From positions 1 to 41,926 of the forward strand of contig SCEJ01000026.1 in the NCBI GenBank assembly GCA_004102785.1: a DNA stretch of 41,926 nucleotides. The letters run 5' to 3'. Shown here piece by piece: positions 15,235-40,653 of this stretch (position 1 is its first letter; the number at the start of each line of letters is the position of its first letter). The stretch comes from Muribaculaceae bacterium Isolate-013 (NCI). Lineage in GTDB: Bacteria; Bacteroidota; Bacteroidia; Bacteroidales; Muribaculaceae. The notes beneath the pieces are model-generated. The model was not told where the DNA came from. It saw nothing but the letters and a program-made list of their open reading frames with translations, and made no database searches. The translations under genes were made by a program, and so were the position numbers.

Positions 15235-15290
15235 GCAGAAAAAGCGATAATCGGGCGCCTGATGCCGGCGCTCCGGGTGATTGTATGCCG

Positions 15291-15322
15291 CAAAGTTACG
15301 GCTTTTTGGCAGAACTGCCAAA
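15291..15322 (-). promoter_or_regulatory. Full Bacteroidetes promoter for the ABC exporter
   Basis: On the minus strand TTTG (15319-15322), 20 bases, then TAACTTTG (15291-15298): an exact fit to TTTG-N19-21-TAnnTTTG. The start codon is 57 bases downstream of the -7 box. The -33 element and the spacer fall inside a perfect palindrome (15299-15328). Confidence 0.8.
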
Positions 15323-15328
15323 AAGCCG
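15299..15328. repeat. Perfect palindrome overlapping the ABC exporter promoter
   Basis: CGGCTTTTTGGCAG, two bases, then its exact reverse complement: 14-base arms. It covers the promoter spacer and -33 box, so it may be an operator. It could also act as a transcript-level stem-loop ending the leftward ferredoxin-oxidoreductase operon. Confidence 0.75.
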
Positions 15329-15351
15329 TGGCTGAATGGGGGGGGAATCGG

Positions 15352-15463
15352 TGGGACTTGTAGGACTTGTGGGACTTGTGGGACTTGTAGGACTTGTGGG
15401 AATCCGGATGGCCTCCTACAAGTCCTACAAGTCCTACCGGTCATACAAGTCCTACCGGTTCTG
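15352..15463. repeat. 9-bp minisatellite in inverted arrangement
   Basis: Five tandem 9-mers of the form T(A/G)GGACTTG occupy 15352-15396. After a short centre (about 15397-15409) the complementary 9-mers CAAGTCCTA follow, interspersed with variants such as CCGGTCATA, up to about 15463. The whole can fold into one long hairpin in the leftward transcript just after the oxidoreductase gamma gene. There are no spacers, so it is not a CRISPR array. Confidence 0.85.
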
Positions 15464-24544: not shown

Positions 24545-24577
24545 AATCCCTCCCCTCAACACTCTATATCCTTGAAA

Positions 24578-26023
24578 ATGAAGAAACTTTCGTTATATCT
24601 GTTACCGGCACTGATAGTGGCCACCCTGGCAAGCTGCGCCTCCGGGCGACGCTCCTCGGCCGGGGGGGAAGTCACCGGCGTGGGCGGCTCGTCGTTTGCC
24701 GAGCCCACACCCTACGGCATGGTGCTGGTGTCGCGCGGCTCAATGGAAATGGGCCCGCAGAAAGCCGACAGCGCCTGGAATATCGAACCCGACACCAAAG
24801 GGATGTCGGTTGATGCCTTCTGGATGGATGAAACCGAGGTGACGAACTCGAAGTACAAGCAGTTCGTGTTCTGGGTACGCGACTCAATTATCCGCGAGCG
24901 CCTGGCCGACCCTGCCTACGGCGGCAACGAAGCCTACAAAATAGAGGAGGACAAGCAGGGCAACCCTGTGACTCCCCACCTCAACTGGTCGAAGCCCATA
25001 CCCTGGCGCAATCCGGGCGAGGATGAGGCGCGCGCCATAGAGAGCGTGTACCGCACCAACCCCATCACCGGCGCGCGCGAACTCGACCCCGCCCAGCTCA
25101 ACTACCGCTACGAAGTGTTCAACCACACCGAGGCCGCCAAGCGCCGCAACCGCCTCGACCCGCGCCGCCGCGTGTACAACACCGACCTGCCCGTGCCGAT
25201 GGAAATCCCCGTGATATCGAAGGATACCGCCTGGATCAACGACGAGGGGGAGATTGTGCGCGAGACGATACAGCGCGGACTCACCGGCGACTACGACTTC
25301 CTCAACACCTATATCGTAAACGTATATCCCGACACCACCTGCTGGGTGAACGATTTCGAGAACGCCTACAACGAACCTTACGTGCGCATGTATTTCAGCC
25401 ACGGCGGTTACAGCGAATACCCCGTGGTGGGTGTGAGCTGGGAGCAGGCCAACGCTTTCTGCAACTGGCGCACCGACTACCTCAAGCGCGCCCTCGGCCG
25501 CGAAGGGGTGTACGTGGAGCCTTACCGCCTCCCCACCGAGGCAGAGTGGGAGTTTGCCGCACGTGCCGGCGAGAACGACAACATGTACCCCTGGGAGGGT
25601 GACCTCCCCATCTCGGAGGACAAAGGCTGCTTCTACGCCAACTTCAAGCCCAACGACGGCAACTACGTAAAGGACGGCCACCTTATCACCTCGCGCGTGG
25701 GCACCTATTCGCCCAACGATTTCGGTCTGTTTGATATGGCCGGCAACGTCAGTGAGTGGACCTCCACCGCCTTCACCGAGGGCGTGGCGTCGCTCACCAG
25801 CGACCTCAACCCCGAGTACCGCTACGATGCCGCCCAGGAGGACCCTTACCGCATGAAGCGCAAGATTGTGCGCGGCGGTTCGTGGAAAGATGTGGCCCAC
25901 AACATCCGCTCCGACCTGCGCATGTGGGAATTCCAGAACGAGCAGCGCTCCTACATCGGTTTCCGCTGCGTGCGCTCGCAGATCGGCTTTGCCAAAGGGC
26001 AGAAACTCAACAACAATAAATAA
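24578..26023 (+). CDS. gldK: GldK/PorK lipoprotein, T9SS outer-membrane ring component
   Basis: With GldN it forms the large periplasmic ring attached to the outer membrane. Lipobox TLASC with C20. The body is an FGE-sulfatase (SUMF1-like) fold, visible in GMVLVSRGSMEMG, FWMDETEVTNSKYKQFV, PVVGVSWEQANAFCNWR, LPTEAEWEFAARAG, GLFDMAGNVSEWT and IVRGGSWKD. The fold is used structurally here. Start at ATG 24578 (481 residues); the TTG two codons earlier is less likely. PorK in P. gingivalis is about 490 residues. Confidence 0.95.
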   Translation: MKKLSLYLLPALIVATLASCASGRRSSAGGEVTGVGGSSFAEPTPYGMVLVSRGSMEMGPQKADSAWNIEPDTKGMSVDAFWMDETEVTNSKYKQFVFWVRDSIIRERLADPAYGGNEAYKIEEDKQGNPVTPHLNWSKPIPWRNPGEDEARAIESVYRTNPITGARELDPAQLNYRYEVFNHTEAAKRRNRLDPRRRVYNTDLPVPMEIPVISKDTAWINDEGEIVRETIQRGLTGDYDFLNTYIVNVYPDTTCWVNDFENAYNEPYVRMYFSHGGYSEYPVVGVSWEQANAFCNWRTDYLKRALGREGVYVEPYRLPTEAEWEFAARAGENDNMYPWEGDLPISEDKGCFYANFKPNDGNYVKDGHLITSRVGTYSPNDFGLFDMAGNVSEWTSTAFTEGVASLTSDLNPEYRYDAAQEDPYRMKRKIVRGGSWKDVAHNIRSDLRMWEFQNEQRSYIGFRCVRSQIGFAKGQKLNNNK

Positions 26024-26113
26024 ACCCTCCCCCGCCATCACAGCCTCTCCTTCACCCCCGGGCCATAGCGCTGCCGCAGTGAGCAGCCCCCGGCCCCCTA
26101 CTCCGGATGGCCA

Positions 26114-26169
26114 CTCTAACCTCTAACCCCTAACCTCTAACCCCTAACCTCTAACCTCTAACCTATAAC
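26114..26169 (+). repeat. Eight tandem 7-bp repeats abutting the gldL start codon
   Basis: Eight back-to-back heptamers of consensus C(T/C)CTAAC occupy exactly 56 bases: five or six are CTCTAAC, two are CCCTAAC, and the last is CTATAAC. A single A then precedes the gldL ATG at 26171. They lie in the 147-base gap between gldK and gldL, the only sizeable gap in the gldKLMN block. The array resembles a degenerate telomeric repeat but sits in a bacterial leader, where unit number could change by slippage. Confidence 0.95.
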
Positions 26170-26170
26170 A

Positions 26171-27139
26171 ATGGTACAGAATATAAAGAAATATAAGCGC
26201 GGCATCGGTGCCTGGATGTCCTCCGAGAAGGGGCAGCGGTTCTTCAACTTCGCTTATTCTATCGGCGCCGCTATCGTGATCTGGGGTGCGCTGTTTAAAA
26301 TCCTCCACCTCCCGGGCGGCAACCTGCTGCTCTGTATCGGCATGGGCACGGAGGTGCTGATGTTCACCCTCACAGCTTTCGACCGTCCGCCCCGCGAATA
26401 CAAATGGGAGAATGTCTTCCCGGTGTTCGATTCCAACAATCCCGATGACCGCCCCGATTTCAGCTCCGGCTCAGGAGTGGTGATTAACGGCGGCGTGTCT
26501 TCCGGTGCCGCCGCAGGGCAGTCCGCAGGCACCCCGCCGGCCCATCAGCCACTGGTGGCCCCCGACCTTACCGGAGCCTCGCCCGGGGTGATAATGGGCG
26601 AGATTACCAATGCCTCGCAGCTTTATGTGAACCAGATAACAGAGATGACCGAGCAACTGCGCCATCTTCAGGAAACCACGCAGGCGCTCAACACCGTCAG
26701 TGACGTGCTCCTGGAATCGTACCGCGCCATCACAGAGAACTCCGAGAGCATCACGCGCTCCTCGGGCGGATACGTAGAGCAGATGCAGAGCCTCAACCGC
26801 AACATCGCCGGACTCAACACCATATATGAGATACAGCTCAAGAGTGTGTCGTCGCAGCTCGACGCCATCGACCGGGTGAACCACGGCATCAAGGATATAT
26901 CGGAGATGTATACCCGCTCGGCCGGCTCGTCGGCCCGCTACTGCGAGGAGACCGAGCGCATGGCCCAGTACATGCAGCAGCTCAATGCAGTGTACGCCAA
27001 GATGATTTCGGCCATGACAATCAACATGTACAACCCCATGGCTGCCGCAGCGGCTGCCGCAGCCCCGGCTCCAGCCGCCCCGGCACAAGCCCCCGAAACC
27101 GAATCAGCCCCACTCACCGAAGCTCCCGAAGATAAATGA
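26171..27139 (+). CDS. gldL: GldL/PorL inner-membrane motor protein of the T9SS
   Basis: With GldM it makes the proton-driven motor that powers secretion and, in gliding species, movement. Two membrane helices lie at about residues 27-46 and 51-69. The second carries E61 in GMGTEVLMF, matching the conserved membrane glutamate implicated in proton use, and H46 sits in the connecting KILHLPGGN. A long cytoplasmic part includes predicted helices (about 135-270) and ends in an Ala/Pro-rich tail (from about 290). 322 residues, near PorL. The stop overlaps the gldM start by 4 bases. Confidence 0.95.
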   Translation: MVQNIKKYKRGIGAWMSSEKGQRFFNFAYSIGAAIVIWGALFKILHLPGGNLLLCIGMGTEVLMFTLTAFDRPPREYKWENVFPVFDSNNPDDRPDFSSGSGVVINGGVSSGAAAGQSAGTPPAHQPLVAPDLTGASPGVIMGEITNASQLYVNQITEMTEQLRHLQETTQALNTVSDVLLESYRAITENSESITRSSGGYVEQMQSLNRNIAGLNTIYEIQLKSVSSQLDAIDRVNHGIKDISEMYTRSAGSSARYCEETERMAQYMQQLNAVYAKMISAMTINMYNPMAAAAAAAAPAPAAPAQAPETESAPLTEAPEDK

Positions 27140-28701
27140 GTACAAGCAACAACAGGCTCTCGCCGCGTCAGAAGATGATCAACCTGATGTACATCGTGCT
27201 GACCGCCATGCTCGCCCTGAACGTGTCATCCGATGTGCTCAACGGCTTCACGCAGGTGGAGGAGGGTCTGACGCGCACCAACACCAACGTGGAGCAGCGC
27301 AACCAGGCTATCCTCAACACCCTCGAGGCCTTTGCCATGCAGAATCCCGACAAAGGGCAGCGATGGTATGACAAGGCGCTTGAAGTGCGCCGCAACACCG
27401 GAGCGCTATATCATAAAATCGACTCTCTGAAACTCCTCATAGTCAAGGAAGCCGACGGCGCCGGAGCCGATGTCGACAATATCCTGAACCGCGACAATCT
27501 CGACGCCGCCGCCGTGGTGATGCTCAACGCTCCGGCCTACCGTGGACGCGAACTGCGCGGCGACGTGGAGAATTTCCGCTCCTACATCGCGGCCCTGATG
27601 CCCGACACGGTGAAACGCAACAACATACTGAAGGCGCTCTCCACCGACCCCGTGGCCCGGAAAGGCACGCTGGTGAAGCAGTCGTGGGAGGAGTCGAAGT
27701 TCGACACCCAGCCCGTGGTGGCCGCAGTCACCCTGCTGACAAAACTCCAGAACGACCTGAAATACGCCGAAGGCGAGGCGCTCCAGACCCTCCTGGGCAA
27801 CGTTGACGCCGGCGATGTGCGCGTGAACGAACTCAACGCCTTTGTGATACCGCAGAGCCGCATCGTGATGCGCGGCGGCAAATATTCGGCCAACATAGTG
27901 CTGGCGGCGGTCGACACCACGGCCCGCCCGGCGGTCTACGTCAACGGCAACCGCCTCAACTCCGCCAAGGGACTTTATGAGTTCACTCCCGGCTCGACCG
28001 GCAAGTTCGACTACAAAGGCTACCTCGAGGTGCCTCATGCCGACGGCTCGGTGACGAAGCTCCCCTTCCAGTCGTCGTACACTGTAATCGAACCGGCCGC
28101 CACCGTTTCGGCCACGATGATGAACGTGCTTTACGCCGGCATCGACAACCCCATCGAGATTTCGGTGCCCGGTGTGCCGATGAGCGATGTGTCGGCCTCC
28201 ATGACCGGCGGCTCGCTGGTGAAGAACGGCAACGGATGGGTGGCGCGCCCCACGGCCGTAGGCTCTGACGCCACCGTCACGGTCAACGCCCAGATGGACG
28301 GCCGCTCCCTCACGGTGGGCACATCGAAATTCCGTGTGCGCAAGCTTCCCGACCCCTCCCCCTATATCGCATATAAGGATGCCAACGGCGCCGAATCGCG
28401 CTTCAAAGGTGGCCGCGGGTTCCCCAAGGCCTCGCTGCTCGCCGCTCCCGGCATCTCCGCCGCAATCGACGACGGTCTGCTCAATATCCAGTTCAAGGTG
28501 CTGAGCTTCGAGACGGTGTTCTTCGACTCCATGGGCAACGCCATACCCGAGGTGAGCGACGGAGCCAGCTTCTCACAGCGCCAGAAGGATTCTTTCCGAC
28601 GCCTCTCGCGTGGCAAGCGCTTCTACATCTCGCGTGTAAAGGCTGTGGGCCCCGACGGCATCACCCGCGACCTGGCTCCAATCGAGGTAATCGTTAACTG
28701 A
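27136..28701 (+). CDS. gldM: GldM/PorM inner-membrane motor and periplasmic shaft of the T9SS
   Basis: Begins SPRQKMINLMYIVLTAMLALNVSSDVL: a single membrane helix at about 13-30 preceded by the family's NxLSPRQKMINLMY pattern. A long periplasmic region with D1-D4-like domains follows: helical D1 to about 220, then beta domains. It transmits motor rotation to the GldK/GldN ring. 521 residues, like PorM (about 516). It overlaps gldL by 4 bases (ATGA), so stoichiometric coupling is likely. Confidence 0.96.
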   Translation: MSTSNNRLSPRQKMINLMYIVLTAMLALNVSSDVLNGFTQVEEGLTRTNTNVEQRNQAILNTLEAFAMQNPDKGQRWYDKALEVRRNTGALYHKIDSLKLLIVKEADGAGADVDNILNRDNLDAAAVVMLNAPAYRGRELRGDVENFRSYIAALMPDTVKRNNILKALSTDPVARKGTLVKQSWEESKFDTQPVVAAVTLLTKLQNDLKYAEGEALQTLLGNVDAGDVRVNELNAFVIPQSRIVMRGGKYSANIVLAAVDTTARPAVYVNGNRLNSAKGLYEFTPGSTGKFDYKGYLEVPHADGSVTKLPFQSSYTVIEPAATVSATMMNVLYAGIDNPIEISVPGVPMSDVSASMTGGSLVKNGNGWVARPTAVGSDATVTVNAQMDGRSLTVGTSKFRVRKLPDPSPYIAYKDANGAESRFKGGRGFPKASLLAAPGISAAIDDGLLNIQFKVLSFETVFFDSMGNAIPEVSDGASFSQRQKDSFRRLSRGKRFYISRVKAVGPDGITRDLAPIEVIVN

Positions 28702-28730
28702 TAATCCCCCCCTTCCATCATAAAAGATAT

Positions 28731-29945
28731 ATGAAACTCGTTGCTAAATATATATTGGCGTCGGTGCTCGCCCTGGGCGCCGTGGCGCCGGCCGTGGCCC
28801 AGGACAACGGCTCCTCGTCATCCACGGTGATGCGTCGCCGCGGCAACACCGACCGCGCGCGCCGCGGCCAGCAGGAGCAGTCGCAGCCGGGTGTCACTCC
28901 GCGTATGCAGCAGCGCCTTGCCGGCGAGTCGAACGTAAGCGACGCCGACCGCCAGTGGATGCGCGTCATCTACCGCGACCTGGAGGTGAAGAATCCGAAG
29001 AACGCCTCACTCTATTTCCCGGAGGATGTGGTCGACGGCCAGGAGAACCTTTTCCGCATTATCATGCGTCTGCTTGCCGAGGGGCGCATCCCGGCCTACG
29101 AATATCTTGACGGAAAGGAGATTTTCACCGACCAGTACCGCCTGAAGGTGGGCGACATGCTCGACCGTTTCCATGTGATGTACACCCCCGCCAAGGGCTC
29201 CACCGAGAAGGCGCCTAAATATACTATCGAGGAGGCCGATGTGCCCTCCAACGAAGTGCTCTCATACTACATGCTCGAGCGCTGGGAGTTCGATTCGCGC
29301 ACAAACAAGACGCGCCGTGTGGCCGAGGCCATCTGCCCGGTGCTGCACCGCACCGACGATTTCGGAGGCGAGGCCGTGCGCTACCCGATGTTCTGGGTGA
29401 AGATGACCGACCTGCGTCCCTACCTGGCCCAGCAGTATATCTTTATTGACGATGACAACAATCTGCCTAAGTACACCTATGCCGACTTCTTCAACATGGC
29501 GATGTACGACGGCGACATCTACAAGACCCGCAACCTTACCAACAAGTCGATGATGCAGCTCTTCCCCGACCCTGACGACCGCAAGCGCGCGCAGGATTCC
29601 ATTCAGGAGCGCCTCGACAACTTCGACAAAAAACTCTGGGTGCCCTCGCGCGAGGAGGTGATTGCCGCGCGTGAGGCCCGCGAGGCCGCCGAAGAAGCTG
29701 CCGAAGCCGCCAAGGCCGAGGCCGAAGCCATCCCCTCGCGCGACGGCGACTCCGGCGAAGGGGTAGCGGAGTCGGCCGCCGAGACAAAGAAGTCGGTGCG
29801 CTCGTCGCGTTCGCGCCGCTCTTCAGCCGCAAAAAAAGAGAATGCAAAGAAGGAAACAAAGAAAAAACAGCCCAAGGCATCGAAGCCGAAGGCAGCCAAG
29901 TCGTCATCCTCGTCGGCTGTGCGCTCGGTGCGCCGCCGTAAATAG
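28731..29945 (+). CDS. gldN: GldN/PorN T9SS ring component with a basic C-terminal tail
   Basis: Signal peptide cleaved near AVAQD (residue 24). The GldN core runs from about 60 to 310, with WMRVIYRDLEVKNPKNASLYFPE, NLFRIIMRLLAEG and PMFWVKMTDLRPYLAQQY. The remaining 90 residues form a low-complexity tail: first Ala/Glu-rich (AREAREAAEEAAEAAKAEAE), then Lys/Ser/Ala-rich ending VRSVRRRK. PorN is about 360 residues, so the tail accounts for much of the extra length in this 404-residue protein. GldN binds GldK in the periplasm; the tail could reach peptidoglycan or another anionic partner. Last gene of the T9SS block, followed by a hairpin at 30020-30065. Confidence 0.93.
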   Translation: MKLVAKYILASVLALGAVAPAVAQDNGSSSSTVMRRRGNTDRARRGQQEQSQPGVTPRMQQRLAGESNVSDADRQWMRVIYRDLEVKNPKNASLYFPEDVVDGQENLFRIIMRLLAEGRIPAYEYLDGKEIFTDQYRLKVGDMLDRFHVMYTPAKGSTEKAPKYTIEEADVPSNEVLSYYMLERWEFDSRTNKTRRVAEAICPVLHRTDDFGGEAVRYPMFWVKMTDLRPYLAQQYIFIDDDNNLPKYTYADFFNMAMYDGDIYKTRNLTNKSMMQLFPDPDDRKRAQDSIQERLDNFDKKLWVPSREEVIAAREAREAAEEAAEAAKAEAEAIPSRDGDSGEGVAESAAETKKSVRSSRSRRSSAAKKENAKKETKKKQPKASKPKAAKSSSSSAVRSVRRRK

Positions 29946-30166: not shown

Positions 30167-30196
30167 TAACTTTGTTAGGTTTTTTAACTACTTTTG
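30167..30196 (+). promoter_or_regulatory. Two -7 boxes upstream of the secreted endonuclease gene
   Basis: TAACTTTG at 30167-30174 and TACTTTTG at 30189-30196 both match TAnnTTTG; the second is 75 bases before the ATG. A correctly spaced TTTG -33 box was not found for either. Confidence 0.5.
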
Positions 30197-30270
30197 TGCG
30201 GCCTACGGCAGGCGGTGGCATTAGCCGGCCGTGGCCTGCGCACTTCTTTCAATATAGTGCCTTTGACTAC

Positions 30271-31974
30271 ATGATGGAAAACAGATTTATATGTAAGGAA
30301 TTACGGCGCGGAATCGTGGCTGTGGCTCTTGCCGCGGCCTTCGGCGCCGCTGCCGATGTGCCGGCAGGCTATTATTCGTCGCTTTCGGGCAAGAGCGGCG
30401 CCGAGCTTAAAAATGCGCTCCATACGTTGCTTTATAACCACACGGAGGTGTCGAGCTATTCGGCGCTTCCCGAATATTTCAGGAAGACTGACGTATATCC
30501 GCGCACTGACCCGAAGTACGGCCAGTGGTGGGAAATGTACTCTGACATCCCTCTGTACACCAACACGTTCTGGGGGCTGAACCGCGAACATGCCTTCCCG
30601 AAGAGCTGGTGGGGCGGCTCGCAGAACACTCCGGCATACGTAGATCTCAACCACCTCTACCCCTCGGAGCAGGCAGCCAACATGGCCAAGAGCAACTATC
30701 CGCTGGGCGAAGTGCAGACCACTTCGTTTGACAACGGCATAACCCGCGTGGGCACTCCGGTGGCCGGCCAGGGGGGCGGCGCGAAGGCCGTGTTCGAGCC
30801 GGCCGACGAATACAAGGGTGATTTTGCCCGCACATACTTCTATATGGTGTGCTGCTACCAGAATCTCACCTGGAAGTACACTTACATGATGAACAACAAC
30901 ACATATCCCACGCTCAACACCTGGAGTATCGACCTGCTGATGAAATGGCACCGCGATGACCCCCCGAGCCAAAAGGAGTTCGACCGCAACGAGGAGGTCT
31001 ACAAGGTGCAGGCCAACCGCAACCCCTTTATCGACTACAAGGATCTTGCCGAATACCTCTGGGGCAACCGCAAGGGGCAGCCGTTCAATCTGGGTGCCGC
31101 ATCGGACCCCGGAGGGGTGCCTGTGCTGGTCACTCCCGTGCAGGATATGTCCCTTGACTTCGGCCAGGTGGCCCAGGGGTGTCAGGGTGAGTCGTCGCTG
31201 CAGTTCCGCGGCGAGAATATACGCTACAACGTGCAGCTAACAGTCACCGGCACCGACGCGGCCATGTTCACCCCGGAGGTGACACAGGTCTCCCCCTCTG
31301 CCATCAATGCTCCGGAAGGGGTGTGGGTGAAGATCAAATATACCCCCGCATCGCTCGGCGCGCACTCGGCGCGCCTGATAGTTTCGGACTACAAGGACGG
31401 CGGCTCGCGCGGCGTGGCTCTCCGCGGCGAATGCCTGGAGCAGCCTGTGCTCCATGATTTCCGTGCGCTTCCGGCCACCGGCGTCACCTCGTCGGGTTAT
31501 ACAGCAAACTGGGAGATACCCGCCCAGGGCGCCCAGCAGGATGTGGTTGACTATTATGTGGTGACGCGTACCATCGTTACCCCCGGCGGCGAGCCGCGTC
31601 AGGTTGACCATGTGGCCGAATACAACTGGCTCGAGGTCGACGACCATACCGACGGCGATGCCGAGAGCTATCATGTGCGTTCCTGCCGCCTGGGTTTCTA
31701 TTCGGCGCAGACCAATGAGGTGAGCGTTGATTTCTCCACGGGGCTGGGCGCTGTGTCGGCCGATATGCCCCTCGGTGTCGTGTATGAGCCGGGAGGTCTG
31801 CGTGTGGTGTGCGGAGGCAGCCACACCGCCCTGCGTGTCTACGATGCCGCCGGGCGCCTTGCCCTGGAGCAGGCCGTTGTGGATGACGGCGAGGTGCTGC
31901 ATCTGCCGTGCGGTGTGTACCTGCTGGTTACGGCCGAGCATCCGCAGCCGGTGAAGGTAATAGTGCGCGATTGA
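30271..31974 (+). CDS. Secreted endonuclease I-family nuclease with T9SS sorting tail
   Basis: A predicted extracellular DNase (Pfam endonuclease_1 type). Signal peptide to about residue 29 (AFGAAADV). Catalytic domain: YYSSLSGKSGAELKNALH, WGLNREHAFPKSWW with H107 of the beta-beta-alpha metal site, and VDLNHLYPSEQAANMAKSNYPLG with the metal-binding asparagine. After about residue 290 come an abnormal-spindle-like beta domain (DFGQVAQG...), a fibronectin-like segment, and a C-terminal LRVYDAAGRLALEQ...LPCGVYLLVT...VKVIVRD, the type A T9SS sorting domain. Start at ATG 30271 (or 30274), because the longer frame to 30172 lies over the promoter. It should leave the cell through the T9SS encoded just upstream and degrade DNA at or beyond the surface. 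It precedes the receptor-lipoprotein genes in the same direction. Confidence 0.9.
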   Translation: MMENRFICKELRRGIVAVALAAAFGAAADVPAGYYSSLSGKSGAELKNALHTLLYNHTEVSSYSALPEYFRKTDVYPRTDPKYGQWWEMYSDIPLYTNTFWGLNREHAFPKSWWGGSQNTPAYVDLNHLYPSEQAANMAKSNYPLGEVQTTSFDNGITRVGTPVAGQGGGAKAVFEPADEYKGDFARTYFYMVCCYQNLTWKYTYMMNNNTYPTLNTWSIDLLMKWHRDDPPSQKEFDRNEEVYKVQANRNPFIDYKDLAEYLWGNRKGQPFNLGAASDPGGVPVLVTPVQDMSLDFGQVAQGCQGESSLQFRGENIRYNVQLTVTGTDAAMFTPEVTQVSPSAINAPEGVWVKIKYTPASLGAHSARLIVSDYKDGGSRGVALRGECLEQPVLHDFRALPATGVTSSGYTANWEIPAQGAQQDVVDYYVVTRTIVTPGGEPRQVDHVAEYNWLEVDDHTDGDAESYHVRSCRLGFYSAQTNEVSVDFSTGLGAVSADMPLGVVYEPGGLRVVCGGSHTALRVYDAAGRLALEQAVVDDGEVLHLPCGVYLLVTAEHPQPVKVIVRD

Positions 31975-32016
31975 AAAATTTTGGGAATGAATCACCGTTT
32001 TTTCACAAAAATTATC

Positions 32017-32024
32017 TATCTTTG
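32017..32024 (+). promoter_or_regulatory. -7 box of the receptor-lipoprotein operon
   Basis: TATCTTTG fits TAnnTTTG, 134 bases before the TonB-dependent receptor start. The leader also holds a 7-base stem (ATCCGTT, loop, AACGGAT, 32092-32110). No good -33 box. Confidence 0.5.
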
Positions 32025-32158
32025 ACCCCCTGACCATTTTGCGGGCGGAGCGCGGGACTGTGTGCCGTTTCCAGGTTTTCCGGCTTCCGTGATCCGTTCC
32101 GCTAACGGATTGTTATCCAATCCGCCAATACCTGAAAAAACATCAAAACAAGTCTAAT

Positions 32159-34942
32159 ATGAGATTAAAAGTGTTTCTACCGCTGCTGATGTCGGCCGCC
32201 GCAACCGGTGTGTCGGCCCAGACCGCCGTAGTGACCGGCTCTGTTGTCGATGCCGACACCGGAGCTCCCGTGGCAGGCGCCACGGTCACTATACCGGGCC
32301 AGAACATCACAGTCGTTACCGGCGCTGCCGGTGATTTCCGCATCTCCAATGCTCTCCCAGGCGAGGCAGTGTTGAAAATCTCTGCTGCCGGATACGGCGA
32401 CGACGCCCTGCAGTTGCGTCTTTACAACGGGCAGTCGGTGCCGATGAGCGTGGCTCTGGCTTCCGACCGCAATGCTGCCGAAGCCATTGTCGACGAATAT
32501 GCCATGGATATGGCTTTCGACGAATCGATGCTCGAGGATGAAGAGGGCAACTCCCAGGCCATTACGGCTCTGAGCGGCTCGTCGGACAATATCTATTACA
32601 AATTCGTGCGCTACGGACTTTCCCCTCTTTACAGCAATTACCGCGGTTACCGCCAGGAGCAGCAGGAGACGTACATCAACGGCATGCCGATGAACGACAT
32701 AGTGCGCGGCGGATTCACCTTCTCGCAGCTCGGCGGCATGACCTCGCGCGCTTTCCGCAACAGCACCGCCACGCAGGGGCTCGGAGCCGCTGCCTACGGC
32801 TTTTCGGCCATCGGCGGCTCGCAGAATTTCAACACCATTACCGAAACCTATTCGCCGGGCTTCAACGGCTCGCTGAGCTACACCAACGCCAACTATTACG
32901 CCCGCGCCATGGCGCAGTATTCCACCGGCATATCTGCCGGCGGATGGGGGCTGACACTGGGCGCCATCGGACGTTATTCCGACGAGGGCGTTGTTGACGG
33001 CACATACTACAACGCCGGCGGCTACTTCCTATCGGCCGAGAAGGTAATCAACCCCAACCACTCGATTACCCTCACCACATGGGGCGCCCCCATGGAGTAT
33101 GCCAACGCCCGCGCCACCGTGCAGGAGGCATACGACCTGGTCGGCTCCAACCTCTACAACCCCTCGTGGGGCTGGCAGGACGGCAAGAAGCGCTCTGACA
33201 ATATCCGCCGCAAGTTCGACCCCACGGTGATGCTCAACTGGATCTTCAAGGATGAGAAAACCACTCTCAACACCGGTGTGGCTTTCCGCTGGATCAACTT
33301 CGCACGCACCCGTCTGAACTACTTCAAAGGCAACGACCCCAAGCCCGACTACTACAAGAATCTCCCATCCTACTGGGAATTCAACCAGGAGGTGCCAGGC
33401 ATGGCCGAGTACTATACCGACATGTGGGAAAACAACACAGGCGGCATACGCCAGATGGACTGGGATTTCTTCTACCGGACCAACTACCTCAACAATGTGG
33501 CCAACCAGGGGCTTCCCGCCGACGAGCAGACCGGCTCCACCTACATGCAGCAGTGGGAGCACTCCAACCAGTTCAACTTCATCGTGAACTCGCTGCTCAA
33601 CCGGCGCCTCAACGACAACCTCACCCTCCAGGCCGGCGTGACCTTCAACTACACAAAGACCGCCGACTACATGACCGTCAAGGACCTTCTCGGCGGCGCA
33701 TACTGGCTTGACGTCGACCCCTTCTCTGACCGCGATGTCAACAACCCGCTGGCCTCGGCCGACATCATGCAGAACGACCTCAACAACCCCAACCGCCGTG
33801 TAGGGGTGGGCGAGCGCTTCGGATATGATTACAATATCCATGCCATGAAAGCTTCGGGCTTCATCCAGAACCAGTTCAATTCCGCCCACTGGGACGCCCA
33901 CTGGGGTGTGCAGCTTAGCTACGAGCAGTTCTACCGCTTCGGCCACATGCGCAACGGCCGCGCTCCCGAGAACTCCTACGGCAAATCCAAGACCTACCGT
34001 TTCGACGACGCTGCCGTGAAGGCCGGCGCCACCTACAAACTCGACGGACGAAACTATTTTACGGTCAACGCCGAATACGGCACACAGGCGCCCCTCATCA
34101 AGGATGTCTACATCTCGCCCCGCATCAAAGACAAGACTGTCGAGAACCTCCACTCGCAGCGTGTGTTCTCGGCCGACGCCGCCTATAACTGGAACTACCG
34201 CCGTTTCCGCGGTTCGGTAGGGGTGTTCTTCACCAATATCACCGGTGCAATCGAGCGCATGGGCTTCTACGACGAGTCGCTCAACACTTTCGTGAACTTC
34301 GCCCTAAGCGATGTGCACCGCCAGTACAAGGGTGTGGAGCTGGGCATGGCCTACAAGATTCTTCCCTCGCTCACAGCATCGGTAGCCGGCACATATTCAC
34401 GTTACCAGTACAAGAACAATCCCATGGGCACACGCTCGGCCGAGAACGAGCTCACTGACCCCCAGGACAAGCGCGTTTACCTAAAGAACTATTTCTGCAC
34501 CTCCACGCCGCAGGCTGCCATGAACATCGCTCTTGACTATGCCGCTCCCAAAAACTGGTACTTCAACGTAAACGCCACATGGATGGGCGACTACTACGTG
34601 CAGCTCGCATACCCCTACCATGAAGAGATGCCCGACATCTGGACCGTGGCCAGCACATACGAAGAGGCTGAGGCTATCGTCGACGCTTTCGCCACCCAGG
34701 AGAAACTCCCCTGCAACTGGGTGCTCAATGCCTCCATAGGCAAAAGCATCTATTTCAACCGCAAGGTGGGACTCAACTTCAACCTCTCCGTGTCGAATAT
34801 CCTCAACAACACCAACCTGGTAACCAACGCTTTCCAGCAGAGCCGCGTCGATACTAAAAAGTACAACCCCAAGGCATATCCCACCAAATACCAGTACGCA
34901 CAGGGCGTGAAGGTGTATTTCAACGTGGGCGTCCGCTTCTAA
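32159..34942 (+). CDS. TonB-dependent outer-membrane receptor with carboxypeptidase-regulatory-like domain
   Basis: A 927-residue outer-membrane receptor. Signal peptide cleaved after GVSAQ (residue 21). An N-terminal carboxypeptidase-D-regulatory-like beta domain (about 24-100, VVTGSVVDADTGAPVAGATV) is followed by a plug-like region with TYINGMPMNDIVRGG and GAAAYGFSAIGGSQNF, then a 22-strand-type barrel ending in a C-terminal phenylalanine (VGVRF). It is not accompanied by SusD; its partners are two DUF5689-type lipoproteins directly downstream (15-base and 12-base gaps). Substrate unknown; nucleic-acid fragments are a reasonable guess because of the nuclease gene just upstream. Confidence 0.88.
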   Translation: MRLKVFLPLLMSAAATGVSAQTAVVTGSVVDADTGAPVAGATVTIPGQNITVVTGAAGDFRISNALPGEAVLKISAAGYGDDALQLRLYNGQSVPMSVALASDRNAAEAIVDEYAMDMAFDESMLEDEEGNSQAITALSGSSDNIYYKFVRYGLSPLYSNYRGYRQEQQETYINGMPMNDIVRGGFTFSQLGGMTSRAFRNSTATQGLGAAAYGFSAIGGSQNFNTITETYSPGFNGSLSYTNANYYARAMAQYSTGISAGGWGLTLGAIGRYSDEGVVDGTYYNAGGYFLSAEKVINPNHSITLTTWGAPMEYANARATVQEAYDLVGSNLYNPSWGWQDGKKRSDNIRRKFDPTVMLNWIFKDEKTTLNTGVAFRWINFARTRLNYFKGNDPKPDYYKNLPSYWEFNQEVPGMAEYYTDMWENNTGGIRQMDWDFFYRTNYLNNVANQGLPADEQTGSTYMQQWEHSNQFNFIVNSLLNRRLNDNLTLQAGVTFNYTKTADYMTVKDLLGGAYWLDVDPFSDRDVNNPLASADIMQNDLNNPNRRVGVGERFGYDYNIHAMKASGFIQNQFNSAHWDAHWGVQLSYEQFYRFGHMRNGRAPENSYGKSKTYRFDDAAVKAGATYKLDGRNYFTVNAEYGTQAPLIKDVYISPRIKDKTVENLHSQRVFSADAAYNWNYRRFRGSVGVFFTNITGAIERMGFYDESLNTFVNFALSDVHRQYKGVELGMAYKILPSLTASVAGTYSRYQYKNNPMGTRSAENELTDPQDKRVYLKNYFCTSTPQAAMNIALDYAAPKNWYFNVNATWMGDYYVQLAYPYHEEMPDIWTVASTYEEAEAIVDAFATQEKLPCNWVLNASIGKSIYFNRKVGLNFNLSVSNILNNTNLVTNAFQQSRVDTKKYNPKAYPTKYQYAQGVKVYFNVGVRF

Positions 34943-34957
34943 TCATTACGGTAAATC

Positions 34958-36727
34958 ATGAAAAAGACATTATTATATATAGCTCTGGCCGTGGCTTCGG
35001 CCGCGGGGTTCGCTTCGTGCGACGACGACTTCGAGCGTCCGCCGATCACACGCCCGGGCGACGCCGAGCAGATCGAGGCCAATATCACCCTGCTCGAACT
35101 CAAGGAGGCTTTCTATAATGCCTCCGCATCGAACTACGCCACTGAAATCGGCACAAATGCCGACGGCGAGCACTACATTGTGCGCGGCCGCATTGTGTCG
35201 AACGATGAGTCGGGCAATGTCTACAAGTCGCTTGTTATCGAGGACGGCACTTCAGGCATGGCATTCTCGGTGAATATCTCCAAGCTTTACCAGTACTATA
35301 AGTTCGGGCAGGAAGTGGCTGTTGACGTCACCGGCCTCTACATCGGTGCCTACGGCAACAACATGCAGATCGGCGCTGCCCCCACAACCAACGATTATCC
35401 CTCGCGTATCGAAGAGGAGGACTTCAAGGCTGTGGCCATAGTGCAGAGCGACCCCGAACCCGACAAAGTAGTGCCTTACGAGGTGACTCTTGACGAACTC
35501 AGCACCCTCAAACAGAATCCTTCGGAGCTCCTTGCCTGGCAGAACCGCTTCATCGTGCTTAAGGATATGCGTTTCGAGAAGCCCGGACAGCCTTTCGGCG
35601 AGTCAGGCTCGACTGTGAACCGCACTCTGATTGCCCCCGACGGCAAGACTATAATTATGCGCAACAGCGGTTACTCTACCTGGTGGGCGCAGCTTCAGCC
35701 CGCCGGCACCGGTTCCGTAAAGGCTGTGCTTTCCTTCTTCAGCCGCGACTGGCAGCTTATGCTCAACTCTCCGGCCGACCTTGAGGGCTTCACCGATGCC
35801 GAGCCTGAAAAACCGATTGTCGGCGGCGATGGCACCCAGGCTTCGCCCTACACCGTGGCCCAGCTCCTGAGTCAGGGCGCTCCCTCCGTGGCCGAACCCG
35901 ACAAATGGGTCAAAGGCGTTATCGTGGGCTTTATCCCCGACAAGTCGCTCTCCGAGGCTGTGTTCTCCGCTTCCGGAGCCGTAGCTACCAACATTGTGCT
36001 TGGCGCCACCGCCGAGACGGCATCGGCTTCCGATGTACTTCCCGTGCAGCTCCCCGCAGGCGTCATCCGCTCGGCTCTCAACCTTTCCGACAACCCCTCG
36101 CTCCTTGGCAAAGAGGTGCTTCTGAAGGGTTCGGTAGAGAAATATTTCGGAGCCTGCGGTCTCAAGTCGGTCAGCGCCGCCATTGTCGACGGCAAGGAAA
36201 TAGGCTCGGCCGGCGGCGACACCCCCGCTCCCCCCACAGGCACCGTTGTGTTTACCGAAACATTCGCTTCTGGTCAGGGCAGTTTCACCATAGACAACAT
36301 CAAGCTCCCCTCTGAGCTTACATATGTATGGAATTACGATTCGCGCTATTCGTGCATGAAAGCGTCGGCGTTCCTCAACAATACCAACTATGACGCCGAC
36401 GCCCGTCTGGTGTCGCCTGAAATCGACCTCAGCGGCTACACTTCGGCTTCGGCCTCGTTCGAGCAAGCACTCAACTTCTTCTCGACAACCGACCAGGCAA
36501 AGAAGGAGGCCCTCTTCGAGGTGAGCACCGACGGCGGCTCGACATGGACTCCCGTTGCCATCCCCAATTATCCCGACTCCATGAGCTGGACATTCGTGTC
36601 GACCGGAGCCATCGACCTCTCGGCCTATGCCGGCAAGAAAATCAAGGTGGCTTTCCACTATATCGGCACCGCTGCCAAGAGCGGCACATGGGAGCTTAAC
36701 AAACTTAATGTGTACGGCACCAAATAA
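34958..36727 (+). CDS. DUF5689/DUF6359-type surface lipoprotein 1
   Basis: Lipobox FASC with C21 followed by DDDF, an acidic +2 to +4 region that favours surface export in Bacteroidetes. Domain order as I read it: DUF5689 OB-fold-like region (about 43-270, with EHYIVRGRIVSNDESGNVYKSLVIED and VAVDVTGLYIGAYG); a DUF6359-like domain (about 280-415, GDGTQASPYTVAQLL and VKGVIVGFIPDKS); and a jelly-roll, choice-of-anchor-J-like C-terminus (about 425-589, ETFASGQGSFTIDN, FHYIGTAAKSGTWELNKLNV). It lies in the middle of the receptor operon. OB-folds often bind nucleic acids or oligosaccharides; ligand not shown. Confidence 0.85.
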   Translation: MKKTLLYIALAVASAAGFASCDDDFERPPITRPGDAEQIEANITLLELKEAFYNASASNYATEIGTNADGEHYIVRGRIVSNDESGNVYKSLVIEDGTSGMAFSVNISKLYQYYKFGQEVAVDVTGLYIGAYGNNMQIGAAPTTNDYPSRIEEEDFKAVAIVQSDPEPDKVVPYEVTLDELSTLKQNPSELLAWQNRFIVLKDMRFEKPGQPFGESGSTVNRTLIAPDGKTIIMRNSGYSTWWAQLQPAGTGSVKAVLSFFSRDWQLMLNSPADLEGFTDAEPEKPIVGGDGTQASPYTVAQLLSQGAPSVAEPDKWVKGVIVGFIPDKSLSEAVFSASGAVATNIVLGATAETASASDVLPVQLPAGVIRSALNLSDNPSLLGKEVLLKGSVEKYFGACGLKSVSAAIVDGKEIGSAGGDTPAPPTGTVVFTETFASGQGSFTIDNIKLPSELTYVWNYDSRYSCMKASAFLNNTNYDADARLVSPEIDLSGYTSASASFEQALNFFSTTDQAKKEALFEVSTDGGSTWTPVAIPNYPDSMSWTFVSTGAIDLSAYAGKKIKVAFHYIGTAAKSGTWELNKLNVYGTK

Positions 36728-36739
36728 TCTGATAACATT

Positions 36740-38980
36740 ATGATTCTCAAAAAACTATTATACGGAGCTGTGGCCTTTGCCGCCGCCATGGGGGTTGCCT
36801 CGTGCCAGGACGACATCGCCAAGCCCGCATCGGCTTACGAGGTGCCCAAGGCCACCCTCCAGGCCAACACCACCATCATGGAGGTGAAGGAGAAATTCTG
36901 GAAAAACGAGACTCCCTATTGCGAGGAGATTCCGGCGAAGGAAAACGGCGAGCACTATATCATCTCGGGACGCGTGATTTCGGCCGACCGCGAGGGTAAT
37001 GTGTTCAAATGCCTCTACCTGCGCGACGAGACAGCCGCTATACCCATCTCTATCAACACCTATAATCTCTGGCTCACCTACCGCGTGGGGCAGGAGATTG
37101 TGCTCGACCTCACCGGCATGTACATCGGCCGCTATGCGGGCCTGCTGCAGCTCGGCTTCCCGAAATGGAAGGACTCTGCCAATAACTTCGAGCCTACATT
37201 CATGGCTCCTGAATTCTTTGACGAGCACCGCCAGCTCAACGGGCTGCCCGAGCCATCGAAGGTGGAGCCGCTGCTGATCGAGTCGATCGATATGCTCAAC
37301 ACCAATGCCGCGCTCACCAACGGCGAGTTCCTGCGCCAGTGGCAGGGGCAGCTTGTGCGCATCAACAACGTGCATTTCAAGAATGCCGACGGCACTGCCA
37401 CTCTCTGCGCCGAATATCACTCCTCGGGCGAGAACCAGCCTATCGTCGACGCCAACGGCTCGGAGCTGAATATCCGCACCTCGGGCTACGCCTCGTTCTG
37501 GAACACCGTGCTCCCCTCAGGCAGCGGCGATGTGGTCGGTATACTGGGCTACTATTATTCAAGCGCCTCGGCCTCTCCCTGGCAGCTTGTGCTGATTGAT
37601 GCCGACGGCCTGATGAATTTCGGCAACCCCACTCTCCCCAACGGCTCGGAGGCCAACCCCTGGAGCGTTGACGAGGGTATAGAGAAAATCAATGCCGGCG
37701 AAACCCCGATGGGCTGGACTGAAGGCTTTATCGTAGGCACCGTGGCTCCCGAGGTAGAGACCGTCACCTCGCCCGACCAGATCGAGTGGGGCGCGACGGC
37801 CACACTGCGCAACACTGTGGTTATCGGCGCCACACCCGACACCCGCGACCTCGCGGCCTGCCTGATTGTGCCTCTGCCCCAGGGCTCGCGTATGCGTGAG
37901 TATGTGGCTTTGGCCGACCATCCCGAGAACCTTGGCAAGAAGCTCAACGTATTCGGCACACTCGACAAGGTGATGGGCGTGTTCGGAATCACCGGCAACA
38001 ACGGCTCCTCCACCGAATTCCACCTTGAAGGTGTCGATGTGCCCGGCGATGATTCCAATCCCGGCGTGCCCTCCACCGGTATTCCCGAAGGCAGCGGTAC
38101 CGAGGCTTCGCCCTGGAATCCCTCGCAGATGCTTGCCGCCGGCGCTCCCTCGGCCGCGGTGGCCAACACCTATGTCAAGGGCTACATTGTGGGCTTCATC
38201 CCCGACAAGTCTATATCTGAAGCCAAGTTCGAGCTTCCCGCCACTTCGGCTACCAACATTCTGATTGCCACCGAGCCGTCGGGCAACACTTCATCTACCG
38301 TGGTGCCCGTGCAGCTCCCCGCCGGAGCCATCCGTTCGGCTCTCAACCTCCAGGATAACCCGGATAATTTCGGCAAGGTGGTTACGCTCTGCGGCTCGTT
38401 CGAGAAGTATTTCGGCACCGCCGGCCTCAAGTCAGTGTCCACTTATAAGTTCGAGGATGGCGAAGGTGGCGGCAACACCCCCACACAGCCCTCCGGCGCC
38501 ACACTCTTCTCCGAAACTTTCGCATCGGGACAGGGGGCGTTCACAATCGATAATATCCTTCTCGGATCAGGTATGAGCTATGTATGGAACTTCGACGAGC
38601 GCTATTCTTGCATGAAGGCTTCGGCCTTTGTCGGAGGCTCAAACCATGCCTCTGAGGCCCGTCTGATTTCGCCCGAGATTGACCTTACCGGTGTTACCGG
38701 CGCACAGCTCACCTACGACCAGGCATGCAAGTTCTTCGGCTCGCTCGACAACTGCGCCAAGTCGGCCGCCTGCGAAATCTCTGCCGACGGCGGCTCGACA
38801 TGGACAGCCCTCACCGCTCCCGGTCTTTCGGAGTATGACTCCTGGACTTTCATGAGCTCGGGCGCCATCGACCTTTCGGCCTATGTGGGCAAAAAGGTGA
38901 AACTCGCCTTCCACTACACTTCCACCGATGCCATCGCCGGCACCTGGGAGCTTAAAAACGTGCTTGTGACCTCAAAATAA
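36740..38980 (+). CDS. DUF5689/DUF6359-type surface lipoprotein 2
   Basis: A 746-residue paralogue of the preceding protein. Lipobox VASC (C22) followed by QDD. DUF5689-like region at about 40-290 (EHYIISGRVISADREGNVFKCLYLRDE, IVLDLTGMYIGRYAG). It then has two tandem DUF6359-like copies: a diverged one at about 295-430 (GSEANPWSVDEGIEKI, TEGFIVGTVAPE) and a close match to the paralogue at about 450-570 (GTEASPWNPSQML, VKGYIVGFIPDKSISE). The same jelly-roll-like C-terminus ends in FHYTSTDAIAGTWELKNVLVTSK. The extra copy explains the larger size. Last gene of the operon, followed by a strong terminator. Confidence 0.85.
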   Translation: MILKKLLYGAVAFAAAMGVASCQDDIAKPASAYEVPKATLQANTTIMEVKEKFWKNETPYCEEIPAKENGEHYIISGRVISADREGNVFKCLYLRDETAAIPISINTYNLWLTYRVGQEIVLDLTGMYIGRYAGLLQLGFPKWKDSANNFEPTFMAPEFFDEHRQLNGLPEPSKVEPLLIESIDMLNTNAALTNGEFLRQWQGQLVRINNVHFKNADGTATLCAEYHSSGENQPIVDANGSELNIRTSGYASFWNTVLPSGSGDVVGILGYYYSSASASPWQLVLIDADGLMNFGNPTLPNGSEANPWSVDEGIEKINAGETPMGWTEGFIVGTVAPEVETVTSPDQIEWGATATLRNTVVIGATPDTRDLAACLIVPLPQGSRMREYVALADHPENLGKKLNVFGTLDKVMGVFGITGNNGSSTEFHLEGVDVPGDDSNPGVPSTGIPEGSGTEASPWNPSQMLAAGAPSAAVANTYVKGYIVGFIPDKSISEAKFELPATSATNILIATEPSGNTSSTVVPVQLPAGAIRSALNLQDNPDNFGKVVTLCGSFEKYFGTAGLKSVSTYKFEDGEGGGNTPTQPSGATLFSETFASGQGAFTIDNILLGSGMSYVWNFDERYSCMKASAFVGGSNHASEARLISPEIDLTGVTGAQLTYDQACKFFGSLDNCAKSAACEISADGGSTWTALTAPGLSEYDSWTFMSSGAIDLSAYVGKKVKLAFHYTSTDAIAGTWELKNVLVTSK

Positions 38981-39005
38981 TTCCGGCTGTAAAGAGCCTC
39001 GACAG

Positions 39006-39039
39006 AAAAAGCCATCCGGTGTGTGCCGGGTGGCTTTTT
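39006..39039 (+). terminator. Rho-independent terminator of the receptor-lipoprotein operon
   Basis: AAAAAGCCATCCGG, loop TGTGTG, CCGGGTGGCTTTTT: a 14-base stem with one wobble pair, ending in a T-tract, 25 bases after the last stop. Confidence 0.92.
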
Positions 39040-39075
39040 CTATGTCGGCGTGTTATGAAATAGATTATAATTTCG

Positions 39076-39123: not shown

Positions 39124-40653
39124 ATGGATTCAGAATTCACCCTTGGCACGGATGCGGCAGAGTATGATGCAGCCCCGTTTCATAACATGCAGCTCCTTCA
39201 TGAGTCGAAGGAGGGGCACTGCCGTGTGTTTCTCTGCGAGCATTACGGCCGGAAGGTTGTGGTGAAGGCTCTGCGCGAGAAGTACCGCGATTCGGAGGTT
39301 TACCGCCGTATGCTCCGGAAGGAGTTCACTATCGCGGCGTCGATGACTCATGAAAACATAGTGTCGGCGCTCTTTTTCAATGAGGTGCCGGGGTTCGGGT
39401 TGTGCATTGTGATGGAGTATTTCGACGGTGTGACGCTTACGGAATATATGCACGGGCATCCGCACCTGAGGCGTAGTGAGGCGCTCGCGTTGCTTCAGCA
39501 GATCTGCAGCGCCGTTGACTATATACATTCCCGCCGCATTGTGCACCGCGACCTAAAGCCGGGCAATATCCTGGTTACTTCCGACGGCCGTTATGTCAAA
39601 ATCATAGATTTCGGGCTCAGTCACGGCCCGGCATTCCTGCAGTTCGACCTGCCGGGAGGCACTCCCGGATATATCGCTCCTGAGGTCATGGAGACGTCGG
39701 TCGGCGCTGAATCCGGATTCAATGTCGACATTTATTCACTCGGGAGTATAATATGCAAACTTGGCTGCGGCCATGAAGCTATGGCCGCCGTGGGGCGCCG
39801 ATGCCTCGCAGAGTCGCCGCAGAGCAGGCCTAAGTCGGCGGCGCTGATAGTGCCGATGATCAGGCGGCGCTACCGCGTGCGCCGCTGGCTGGCGGCGGGA
39901 ATTGCGGCCGGATTGGCCGTGGTGTCGGCAGTGCTTATGTTGGCTCCGGAGGGTGCACGCAAGGCTTCCGGCCGGGGTGAGATGAATAAGGCGCGCATGG
40001 AGCAGGCCGCGGATGTGCCGTCGGCCGTAGTCGATTCTATGGCAGAGCCTGTCGCCGCGCAGGCAGCAGCGGCAAATCCCGGCGTTGTGACCGCTATGCC
40101 GGAGATGCCGGCGACAACAGTGTCAAACGATAATGAGGCCGCCCCGTCTGACTACTCCTCCTTGCCGCTGGAGGAGCAGGTTTACCGTTATGCCAAAGTG
40201 GTGGCGGCGCAACGTTTCGCCGAGCATCTGCATATGTGGGATACACTGACAACAACGCGTTCGATGGAACTTTGCATGGTGAAGCACTGGCGCTGGAAAG
40301 CTCGCGAGGATGTGCGCCGCTGGCTGGCGACACGCATCGATGCCCATTCGCCCTATATGGATGATCTGATGGAGATCGCGGCCAAAACGGTTGTGCGCTA
40401 TGGCGACGAGCACCAGGGAGAGGAATATGCGGTGGCACAGCGGGCGGCCAGGCGCACACCGAAAGCTACCGGAGCCACTTTGCGGTGGACGGAGAACCTC
40501 GGCGACGGAAAATTCAAGACCTGCTGGCTGCAGGAGGACGGCACGTGGGCTTATAAGATAGAGGACGTCAGATCAAAGTGGATCCGCACGCATCCGGATG
40601 CCACCACATTCCCTGATTTCGATACAATGTGGCCTGATGACGAGGAGCAGTAA
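39124..40653 (+). CDS. Membrane-anchored Hanks-type Ser/Thr protein kinase
   Basis: A 509-residue kinase. Catalytic residues look intact: K48 in VVVKAL, E67, H141-R142-D143 in IVHRDLKPGNILV, D162-F-G in KIIDFGLS, APE at 185-187, and the DIYSLGSII helix. The glycine-rich loop is degenerate (ESKEGHCRVF, a single glycine), and the C-lobe ends early, near residue 250. A membrane helix follows at about 255-274, then an Ala/Pro-rich linker and a unique C-terminal domain (about 345-509) with Trp-rich segments such as KHWRWKAREDVRRWLATR. That domain would be outside the cytoplasm if topology is the usual N-in. It reads as a sensor kinase with unknown ligand. No phosphatase gene is adjacent. Confidence 0.88.
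   Translation: MDSEFTLGTDAAEYDAAPFHNMQLLHESKEGHCRVFLCEHYGRKVVVKALREKYRDSEVYRRMLRKEFTIAASMTHENIVSALFFNEVPGFGLCIVMEYFDGVTLTEYMHGHPHLRRSEALALLQQICSAVDYIHSRRIVHRDLKPGNILVTSDGRYVKIIDFGLSHGPAFLQFDLPGGTPGYIAPEVMETSVGAESGFNVDIYSLGSIICKLGCGHEAMAAVGRRCLAESPQSRPKSAALIVPMIRRRYRVRRWLAAGIAAGLAVVSAVLMLAPEGARKASGRGEMNKARMEQAADVPSAVVDSMAEPVAAQAAAANPGVVTAMPEMPATTVSNDNEAAPSDYSSLPLEEQVYRYAKVVAAQRFAEHLHMWDTLTTTRSMELCMVKHWRWKAREDVRRWLATRIDAHSPYMDDLMEIAAKTVVRYGDEHQGEEYAVAQRAARRTPKATGATLRWTENLGDGKFKTCWLQEDGTWAYKIEDVRSKWIRTHPDATTFPDFDTMWPDDEEQ

What the first reader, a model, noticed from the sequence alone, without database searches (positions are those of the whole stretch)
30167..39039. Candidate extracellular DNA-scavenging system: T9SS-exported nuclease, TonB receptor and two OB-fold-type lipoproteins
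Seen: four genes in one direction between a T9SS cluster and a strong terminator. They encode an endonuclease I with a T9SS tail, a TonB-dependent receptor without SusD, and two DUF5689/DUF6359/jelly-roll surface lipoproteins. Known: endonuclease I enzymes cut DNA, OB-folds often bind nucleic acids, and TonB receptors import. Inference: the nuclease cuts DNA outside, the lipoproteins capture fragments in place of SusD, and the receptor imports them for phosphorus, carbon or nucleobases. I know of no characterised system of this make-up.
Basis: inference. Interest (0 to 1): 0.78.

Follow-up and report, generated by a model that had tools for sequence, protein, structure and literature searches.

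The report
Outer-membrane DNA-uptake module beside a nuclease
Three of the four genes look like a Bacteroidales version of an outer-membrane device that a related bacterium needs to take up DNA from outside, a step whose machinery in this group is still unexplained, while the secreted nuclease next to them is probably only a neighbour.

Summary
The four genes are there, but not as one system. The receptor (32159-34942) and the two DUF5689 lipoproteins form a tight conserved unit. Over 296 Bacteroidota genomes, receptor and DUF5689 gene occur in the same 46 (all of the window's class) and in none of the other 250; adjacent in 45 of 46. Their Riemerella anatipestifer counterparts sit where Huang et al. 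2021 (PMC8459023) place RA0C_RS04915/RS04920, two genes essential for natural transformation. Best reading: an outer-membrane DNA-import module related to a transformation apparatus, in a Bacteroidales variant with two lipoproteins. Endonuclease I lies within 10 kb of the receptor in only 2 of 38 genomes that have both; the recurrent nuclease neighbour is a secreted PF19580 enzyme (29 of 60 mapped loci), elsewhere in this genome. "DNA is imported" is supported by homology; "the nuclease belongs to it" is not; "for food" is open. Against transformation here: no multi-HhH (ComEA-like) match in any of 37 genomes of this family, and one nearly complete module-positive relative without ComEC.

The parts
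32159..34942 (+). TonB-dependent-receptor-like outer-membrane barrel with N-terminal CarboxypepD_reg domain; orthologue of R. anatipestifer RA0C_RS04915
   Evidence: 27% identity end to end, E 3e-89; one clade, SH-aLRT 99
34958..36727 (+). surface lipoprotein 1: DUF5689 + DUF6359 + choice-of-anchor J; homologue of RA0C_RS04920
   Evidence: 27%, E 8e-18; Cys followed by acidic residues (surface-export signal, recalled)
36740..38980 (+). surface lipoprotein 2: DUF5689 + two DUF6359 + choice-of-anchor J; tandem relative of lipoprotein 1
   Evidence: 29%, E 4e-20; 47% identical to lipoprotein 1
32017..32024 (+). TATCTTTG, Bacteroidota-type -7 promoter element ahead of the receptor (motif recalled)
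39004..39041 (+). intrinsic terminator hairpin with T-run ending the receptor/lipoprotein operon
30271..31974 (+). secreted endonuclease I with T9SS-tail-shaped C-terminus; adjacent but probably a separate unit, not part of the module
24572..29945 (+). GldK, GldL, GldM, GldN (type IX secretion); context only

Best explanation
The receptor and the two lipoproteins are the Bacteroidales form of the outer-membrane DNA-uptake module that R. anatipestifer needs for natural transformation. The surface lipoproteins bind extracellular double-stranded DNA and hand it to the receptor barrel, which moves it into the periplasm with TonB energy (binding, hand-over and transport are inferred). There a secreted PF19580 DNase-I-like nuclease, encoded beside the module in 29 of 60 mapped loci but at C32 in this genome, would process it, and ComEC (C350 here) would take one strand inward (inferred). 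Shown here: homology, gene order, co-inheritance, recurrent nuclease neighbour. Published for R. anatipestifer only: loss of transformation when either gene is deleted, and reduced transformation in two tonB mutants. The adjacent endonuclease I is a separate gene.
For: R. anatipestifer locus L092 reads recA, dinB, sdhB, sdhA, sdhC, comEC, a 145-aa gene, a carboxylase, PF19580 nuclease (divergent), receptor, DUF5689 lipoprotein (comEC fixed by a published primer; last three by Pfam; the other names recalled from the sequences). Counting tags by fives from recA = RS04870 gives comEC = RS04895, receptor = RS04915, lipoprotein = RS04920, as in PMC8459023. Unmarked deletions of RS04915 and RS04920 left no detectable transformation. 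The receptor scores 669 bits in R. anatipestifer against 136 for the next barrel, and forms one clade with P0002 apart from paralogues of the same genomes (39 of 63 rows used). Receptor and DUF5689 occur in 46 of 46 against 0 of 250 genomes, adjacent in 45 of 46. The PF19580 gene is adjacent in 11 of 39 mapped relatives, 17 of 20 further loci (20 of 45 available fetched) and R. anatipestifer. tonB mutants transform less (PMC8383284, passages).
Against: No multi-HhH match in the 37 genomes of this family searched, nor in G057, although an HhH protein is essential in R. anatipestifer and ComEA in P. gingivalis. The module is kept anyway, so its use here may not be transformation. ComEC is in 59 of 61 relatives whether or not the module is present, and both genomes without it (G011, 71% complete; G038, 99%) carry the module. 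Huang et al. state that F. johnsoniae has all the homologues yet was not competent under their conditions. P0002 is only 27% identical to RS04915. The PF19580 gene is not at this locus. The R. anatipestifer phenotype could be indirect, and the authors of PMC8383284 link the tonB effects to iron or nutrients. DprA, ComF and DUF1343 were not searched.
Confidence: 0.6

Rival explanations
1. DNA feeding: the same import step serves phosphorus, carbon or nucleobase supply, with secreted nucleases cutting DNA outside.
For: No ComEA-like HhH match in this family, and G038 keeps the module without a ComEC match. Endonuclease I is commoner where the receptor is: 38 of 40 against 6 of 21 genomes, although unlinked. 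Bacteroidota carry many secreted nucleases and Lutibacter takes carbon from DNA (PMC8289736, passages; PMC11495043, passages).
Against: No recurrent nucleotidase, phosphatase or nucleoside-transporter cluster beside the module among the neighbour clusters printed for the mapped loci (products recalled from sequence, rarer neighbours not identified). The only tested homologues act in transformation. The endonuclease I correlation partly follows family membership and was not corrected for descent.
Confidence: 0.22
2. Not DNA at all: the pair imports or anchors another surface ligand, and the R. anatipestifer transformation loss is an indirect surface effect.
For: The R. anatipestifer lipoprotein belongs to the M949_1556 family (591 bits, cut-off 475), named for a gene reported to affect antigenicity and virulence and grouped with LPS genes (PMC6142336, passages; PMC12566107, passages; the 2015 paper itself not seen). 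No solved structure matches DUF5689 by sequence (best E 0.22).
Against: Deleting either gene of the pair leaves no detectable transformation, as with comEC. A nuclease gene is the recurrent neighbour. Weak OB-fold similarity.
Confidence: 0.14
3. The four window genes are one functional unit, with the T9SS endonuclease I as its dedicated cutter.
For: Adjacent and co-directional in the window; G005 has an endonuclease I about 5 kb upstream of its receptor; co-occurrence of the two families.
Against: In 36 of 38 genomes with both, they lie more than 10 kb apart or on different contigs. In 20 relatives' nuclease loci of up to 11 kb (G005 not among them) tblastn at E 1e-15 found no gldKLMN, receptor, lipoprotein 1 or kinase. 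The nuclease has its own promoter-like elements.
Confidence: 0.04

Closest known systems
R. anatipestifer RA0C_RS04915-RS04920 natural-transformation pair (Huang et al. 2021, PMC8459023)
   Same: Orthologous receptor, directly downstream DUF5689 + choice-of-anchor J lipoprotein, ComEC in the genome.
   Different: Two lipoproteins with added DUF6359 domains; 27-29% identity; PF19580 nuclease not at the locus; no ComEA-like HhH match found in the family.
P. gingivalis natural competence (PMC11532111)
   Same: Same order by recall; ComEC present in both.
   Different: ComEA is essential there; its outer-membrane step is stated to be unclear; whether it has this module was not tested.
SusC/SusD nutrient importers
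   Same: TonB-linked barrel paired with a surface lipoprotein.
   Different: No SusD; DUF5689/DUF6359 lipoproteins instead.
Type IV pilus / PilQ secretin DNA uptake (review PMC12236230, passages)
   Same: Brings DNA across the outer membrane before ComEC.
   Different: No pilus or secretin gene in the module; receptor-type barrel; the review has no occurrence of Bacteroid-, Riemerella, Porphyromonas or Flavobacter- (term search).

Membership tests
R. anatipestifer-type outer-membrane transformation pair | orthologous receptor with CarboxypepD_reg domain, full length | tested here: met
R. anatipestifer-type outer-membrane transformation pair | DUF5689 + choice-of-anchor J lipoprotein directly downstream, same direction | tested here: met
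   15 bp gap
R. anatipestifer-type outer-membrane transformation pair | co-inheritance of receptor and lipoprotein | tested here: met
   46/46 versus 0/250; cut-offs chosen after seeing the score gap, shared descent not corrected
R. anatipestifer-type outer-membrane transformation pair | PF19580 nuclease next to the receptor (seen here, not a published criterion) | tested here: not met
   absent at this locus; homologue at G000:C32:47696-48775
complete natural-transformation machinery of Bacteroidota | ComEC inner-membrane channel | tested here: met
   G000:C350, DUF4131 + Competence
complete natural-transformation machinery of Bacteroidota | periplasmic HhH / ComEA-like DNA-binding protein | tested here: not met
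   in 37 family genomes only one HhH stretch of a 700-800 aa, Tex-like (recalled) frame, or nothing, plus one weak 99-aa match in G034 (E <= 0.001); that profile A3 is the RS02645 family is assumed
complete natural-transformation machinery of Bacteroidota | DprA, ComF, DUF1343 protein | not tested
complete natural-transformation machinery of Bacteroidota | transformation phenotype | not testable with these tools
   needs a cultured strain
SusC/SusD importer | SusD-family lipoprotein | tested here: not met
TonB-dependent receptor | plug domain | tested here: inconclusive
   P0002 E 0.022, below cut-off; 11 of 15 members of A1 hit PF07715 at E <= 1, best 5.8e-7
T9SS cargo (nuclease only) | recognised C-terminal sorting domain | tested here: inconclusive
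   no model hit; similar tail in 18 of 19 printed relatives, by eye

The most novel reading that the evidence does not exclude
A TonB-driven machine without a pilus, made of a dedicated barrel, DUF5689 surface lipoproteins and a PF19580 nuclease, is a widespread outer-membrane route for DNA into this class of Bacteroidota, well beyond Flavobacteriaceae. In the family of this window it runs without a ComEA-like protein, its second, DUF6359-rich lipoprotein having taken over DNA capture, or the module having been turned to DNA feeding.
Probability: 0.4. Interest if true: 0.85.

Novelty: new variant of a known kind. Interest (0 to 1): 0.64.

Why it matters
How Bacteroidota bring DNA through the outer membrane is open: PMC11532111 (passages read) says the import of DNA into the periplasm of P. 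gingivalis remains unclear and that its type-IV-like pilus is not involved. Tying a conserved receptor/lipoprotein/nuclease module to the two R. anatipestifer genes whose deletion abolishes transformation gives a concrete candidate in at least two orders, and a direct test. It bears on gene exchange in a large bacterial group and corrects the first-stage idea of a feeding operon built around the endonuclease I.

Tried and rejected
SusC/D-like nutrient locus: rejected, no SusD. Endonuclease I as core part: rejected on linkage. ComEC or HhH presence as a marker of the module: uninformative (ComEC 59 of 61, the two without it being module-positive; outside family f1, HhH in 8 of 9 module-positive and 12 of 15 module-negative genomes). 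Inside f1 the PF19580 nuclease does not track the receptor significantly (29 of 31 versus 4 of 6, p 0.12); outside f1 it does at >= 400 bits (8 of 9 versus 0 of 15). Viral contigs held no relative. PDB sequence searches gave no relative of DUF5689, the PF19580 profile, the nuclease or the barrel beyond the CarboxypepD_reg domain. My ORF caller missed the receptor of G005 (overlapping reverse frames), so its map row is empty; G009 was not fetched. Fisher p values ignore shared descent.

Full report
OBSERVATION. The window holds, on one strand, endonuclease I (30271-31974), a receptor-like barrel (32159-34942) and two lipoproteins (34958-36727, 36740-38980), between gldKLMN and a strong terminator. 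Spacing and promoter-like elements split them into two units: the nuclease alone, and receptor-LP1-LP2 (motif recalled).

LINKAGE. In 61 genomes of the own genus, family and order (own included), receptor orthologues occur in 40 (a few cut by contig ends) and strong DUF5689 genes in 39 of these; two more genomes have only weaker DUF5689 matches (G009, whose receptor is at a contig end, and G055, 70 bits, no receptor). On the same contig within 2 kb by match coordinates: 37 of 40. The exceptions are G009 (contig end), G037 (other contig) and G015, where the map shows a lipoprotein next to the receptor. Endonuclease I is in 38 of the 40, but within 10 kb of the receptor only in G000 and G005. 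In 20 relatives' nuclease loci (G005 not among them) tblastn found no gldKLMN, receptor, lipoprotein 1 or kinase.

CO-INHERITANCE. Over 296 Bacteroidota genomes, 84 match the receptor profile at E <= 1e-40. In 46 the best match scores at least 405 bits (in G282 the frame is split in two); in the other 38 the best scores at most 220 bits and mostly covers only the N-terminal part. DUF5689 reaches E <= 1e-15 in 53 genomes, of which 46 score over 100 bits and seven 60 to 74 bits. The two sets of 46 are identical. All 46 belong to the window's own class; the class also has members without the module in the sample (20 without any receptor match are listed). Cut-offs were set after seeing the gaps, and shared descent is not corrected. 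Adjacent in 45 of 46 (G077 has them on different contigs).

NUCLEASE PARTNER. I mapped 39 of the 40 order-level loci (G009 not fetched) and 20 of the 45 other module-positive genomes of the phylum sample (18 class-level, two order-level). One neighbour recurs in distant members: a secreted PF19580 nuclease, with active-site-type residues invariant in 11 members (residue roles recalled). It sits next to the receptor, mostly divergent, in 11 of 39 and 17 of 20. In six of the 39 and in G325 of the 20 the contig ends too close upstream to tell. It is next to the receptor in R. anatipestifer too, 29 of 60 in all. It is absent from this spot in the mapped members of the window's genus. This genome has it at C32, unlinked.

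LINK TO A TESTED SYSTEM. A published comEC primer led to R. anatipestifer CCUG25054. Its receptor lies nine genes from recA, in the order that the published locus tags of strain ATCC 11845 require. P0002 is 27% identical to the R. anatipestifer receptor over its whole length, P0003 and P0004 27% and 29% to its lipoprotein over the DUF5689 part. A quick ML tree of 39 of the 63 collected barrels puts P0002 and RS04915 in one clade of 34 (SH-aLRT 99), apart from paralogues of both genomes. Huang et al. (outline, passages, section 15 part 1, sections 20 and 21 read) report no detectable transformation in unmarked deletions of either gene. Section 20 says both that homologues of these proteins are widespread in the phylum and that RS04915 homologues were found only in Flavobacteriaceae; here orthologues are found in the window's order too. 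tonB mutants transform less (PMC8383284, passages), which its authors link to iron or nutrients.

MECHANISM. Lipoprotein capture, receptor passage and nuclease processing are inferred. The strongest results against a transformation role here are (no multi-HhH match in 37 genomes of this family, nor in G057, while 20 of the 24 genomes of other families of the order have one, with or without the module; both genomes without ComEC, one of them 99% complete, carry the module) and the published statement that F. johnsoniae has all homologues but was not competent under the conditions tried. Hence I claim the outer-membrane module, not a complete transformation apparatus. Feeding on DNA remains the main rival, followed by a non-DNA role, which the M949_1556 antigenicity reports keep alive.

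LITERATURE. Searches (open-access PMC only; no bioRxiv collection, most subscription journals missing; the lists were not shown in full) returned one paper naming DUF5689, and among the titles and abstracts listed none that links this module to Bacteroidales. PMC6142336, PMC6557517, PMC12566107, PMC11532111, PMC12236230, PMC8289736 and PMC11495043 were seen as passages; all others as listings only.

VERDICT. A real, class-wide, co-inherited outer-membrane module with a tested relative; a new variant of a known kind. The nuclease of the finding is a neighbour.

Noticed in passing
L092:14386-15795: The R. anatipestifer transformation lipoprotein falls in NCBIfam NF052645, named for M949_1556, a gene published separately as an antigenicity/virulence gene; in the passages I saw, neither line of work cites the other for it.
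   Followed up: partly
L092:10106-11299; L043, L044, L045, L047, L048, L053-L056, L058, L062; 17 of L067-L086: A secreted PF19580 (DNase-I-like) nuclease is the recurrent, mostly divergent neighbour of the receptor; by tag counting it is RS04910 in R. anatipestifer, and I saw no report of its deletion.
   Followed up: yes
L028:12899-14578: In G005 (same genus) an endonuclease I lies about 5 kb upstream of the receptor with two ORFs between, the only other near-linkage found.
   Followed up: partly
G038 (L053): A 99% complete, module-positive genome without a ComEC (PF03772) match.
   Followed up: no
G282:C19:401309-404102: The receptor orthologue is split over two matches in separate frames, a possible frameshift or sequencing error.
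   Followed up: no
L077:1174 onward; L086:15566 onward: G242 has a second, paralogous barrel upstream of the module; G298 has a second PF19580 gene nearby.
   Followed up: no
window 39124-40653: A Ser/Thr protein kinase (PF00069) with its own -7-like element (39076) follows the terminator.
   Followed up: no
window 13405-15444: An ORF that looks like an ABC transporter (recalled from sequence) begins with a low-complexity repeat (LQVPQV), which suggests that its true start lies further in.
   Followed up: no
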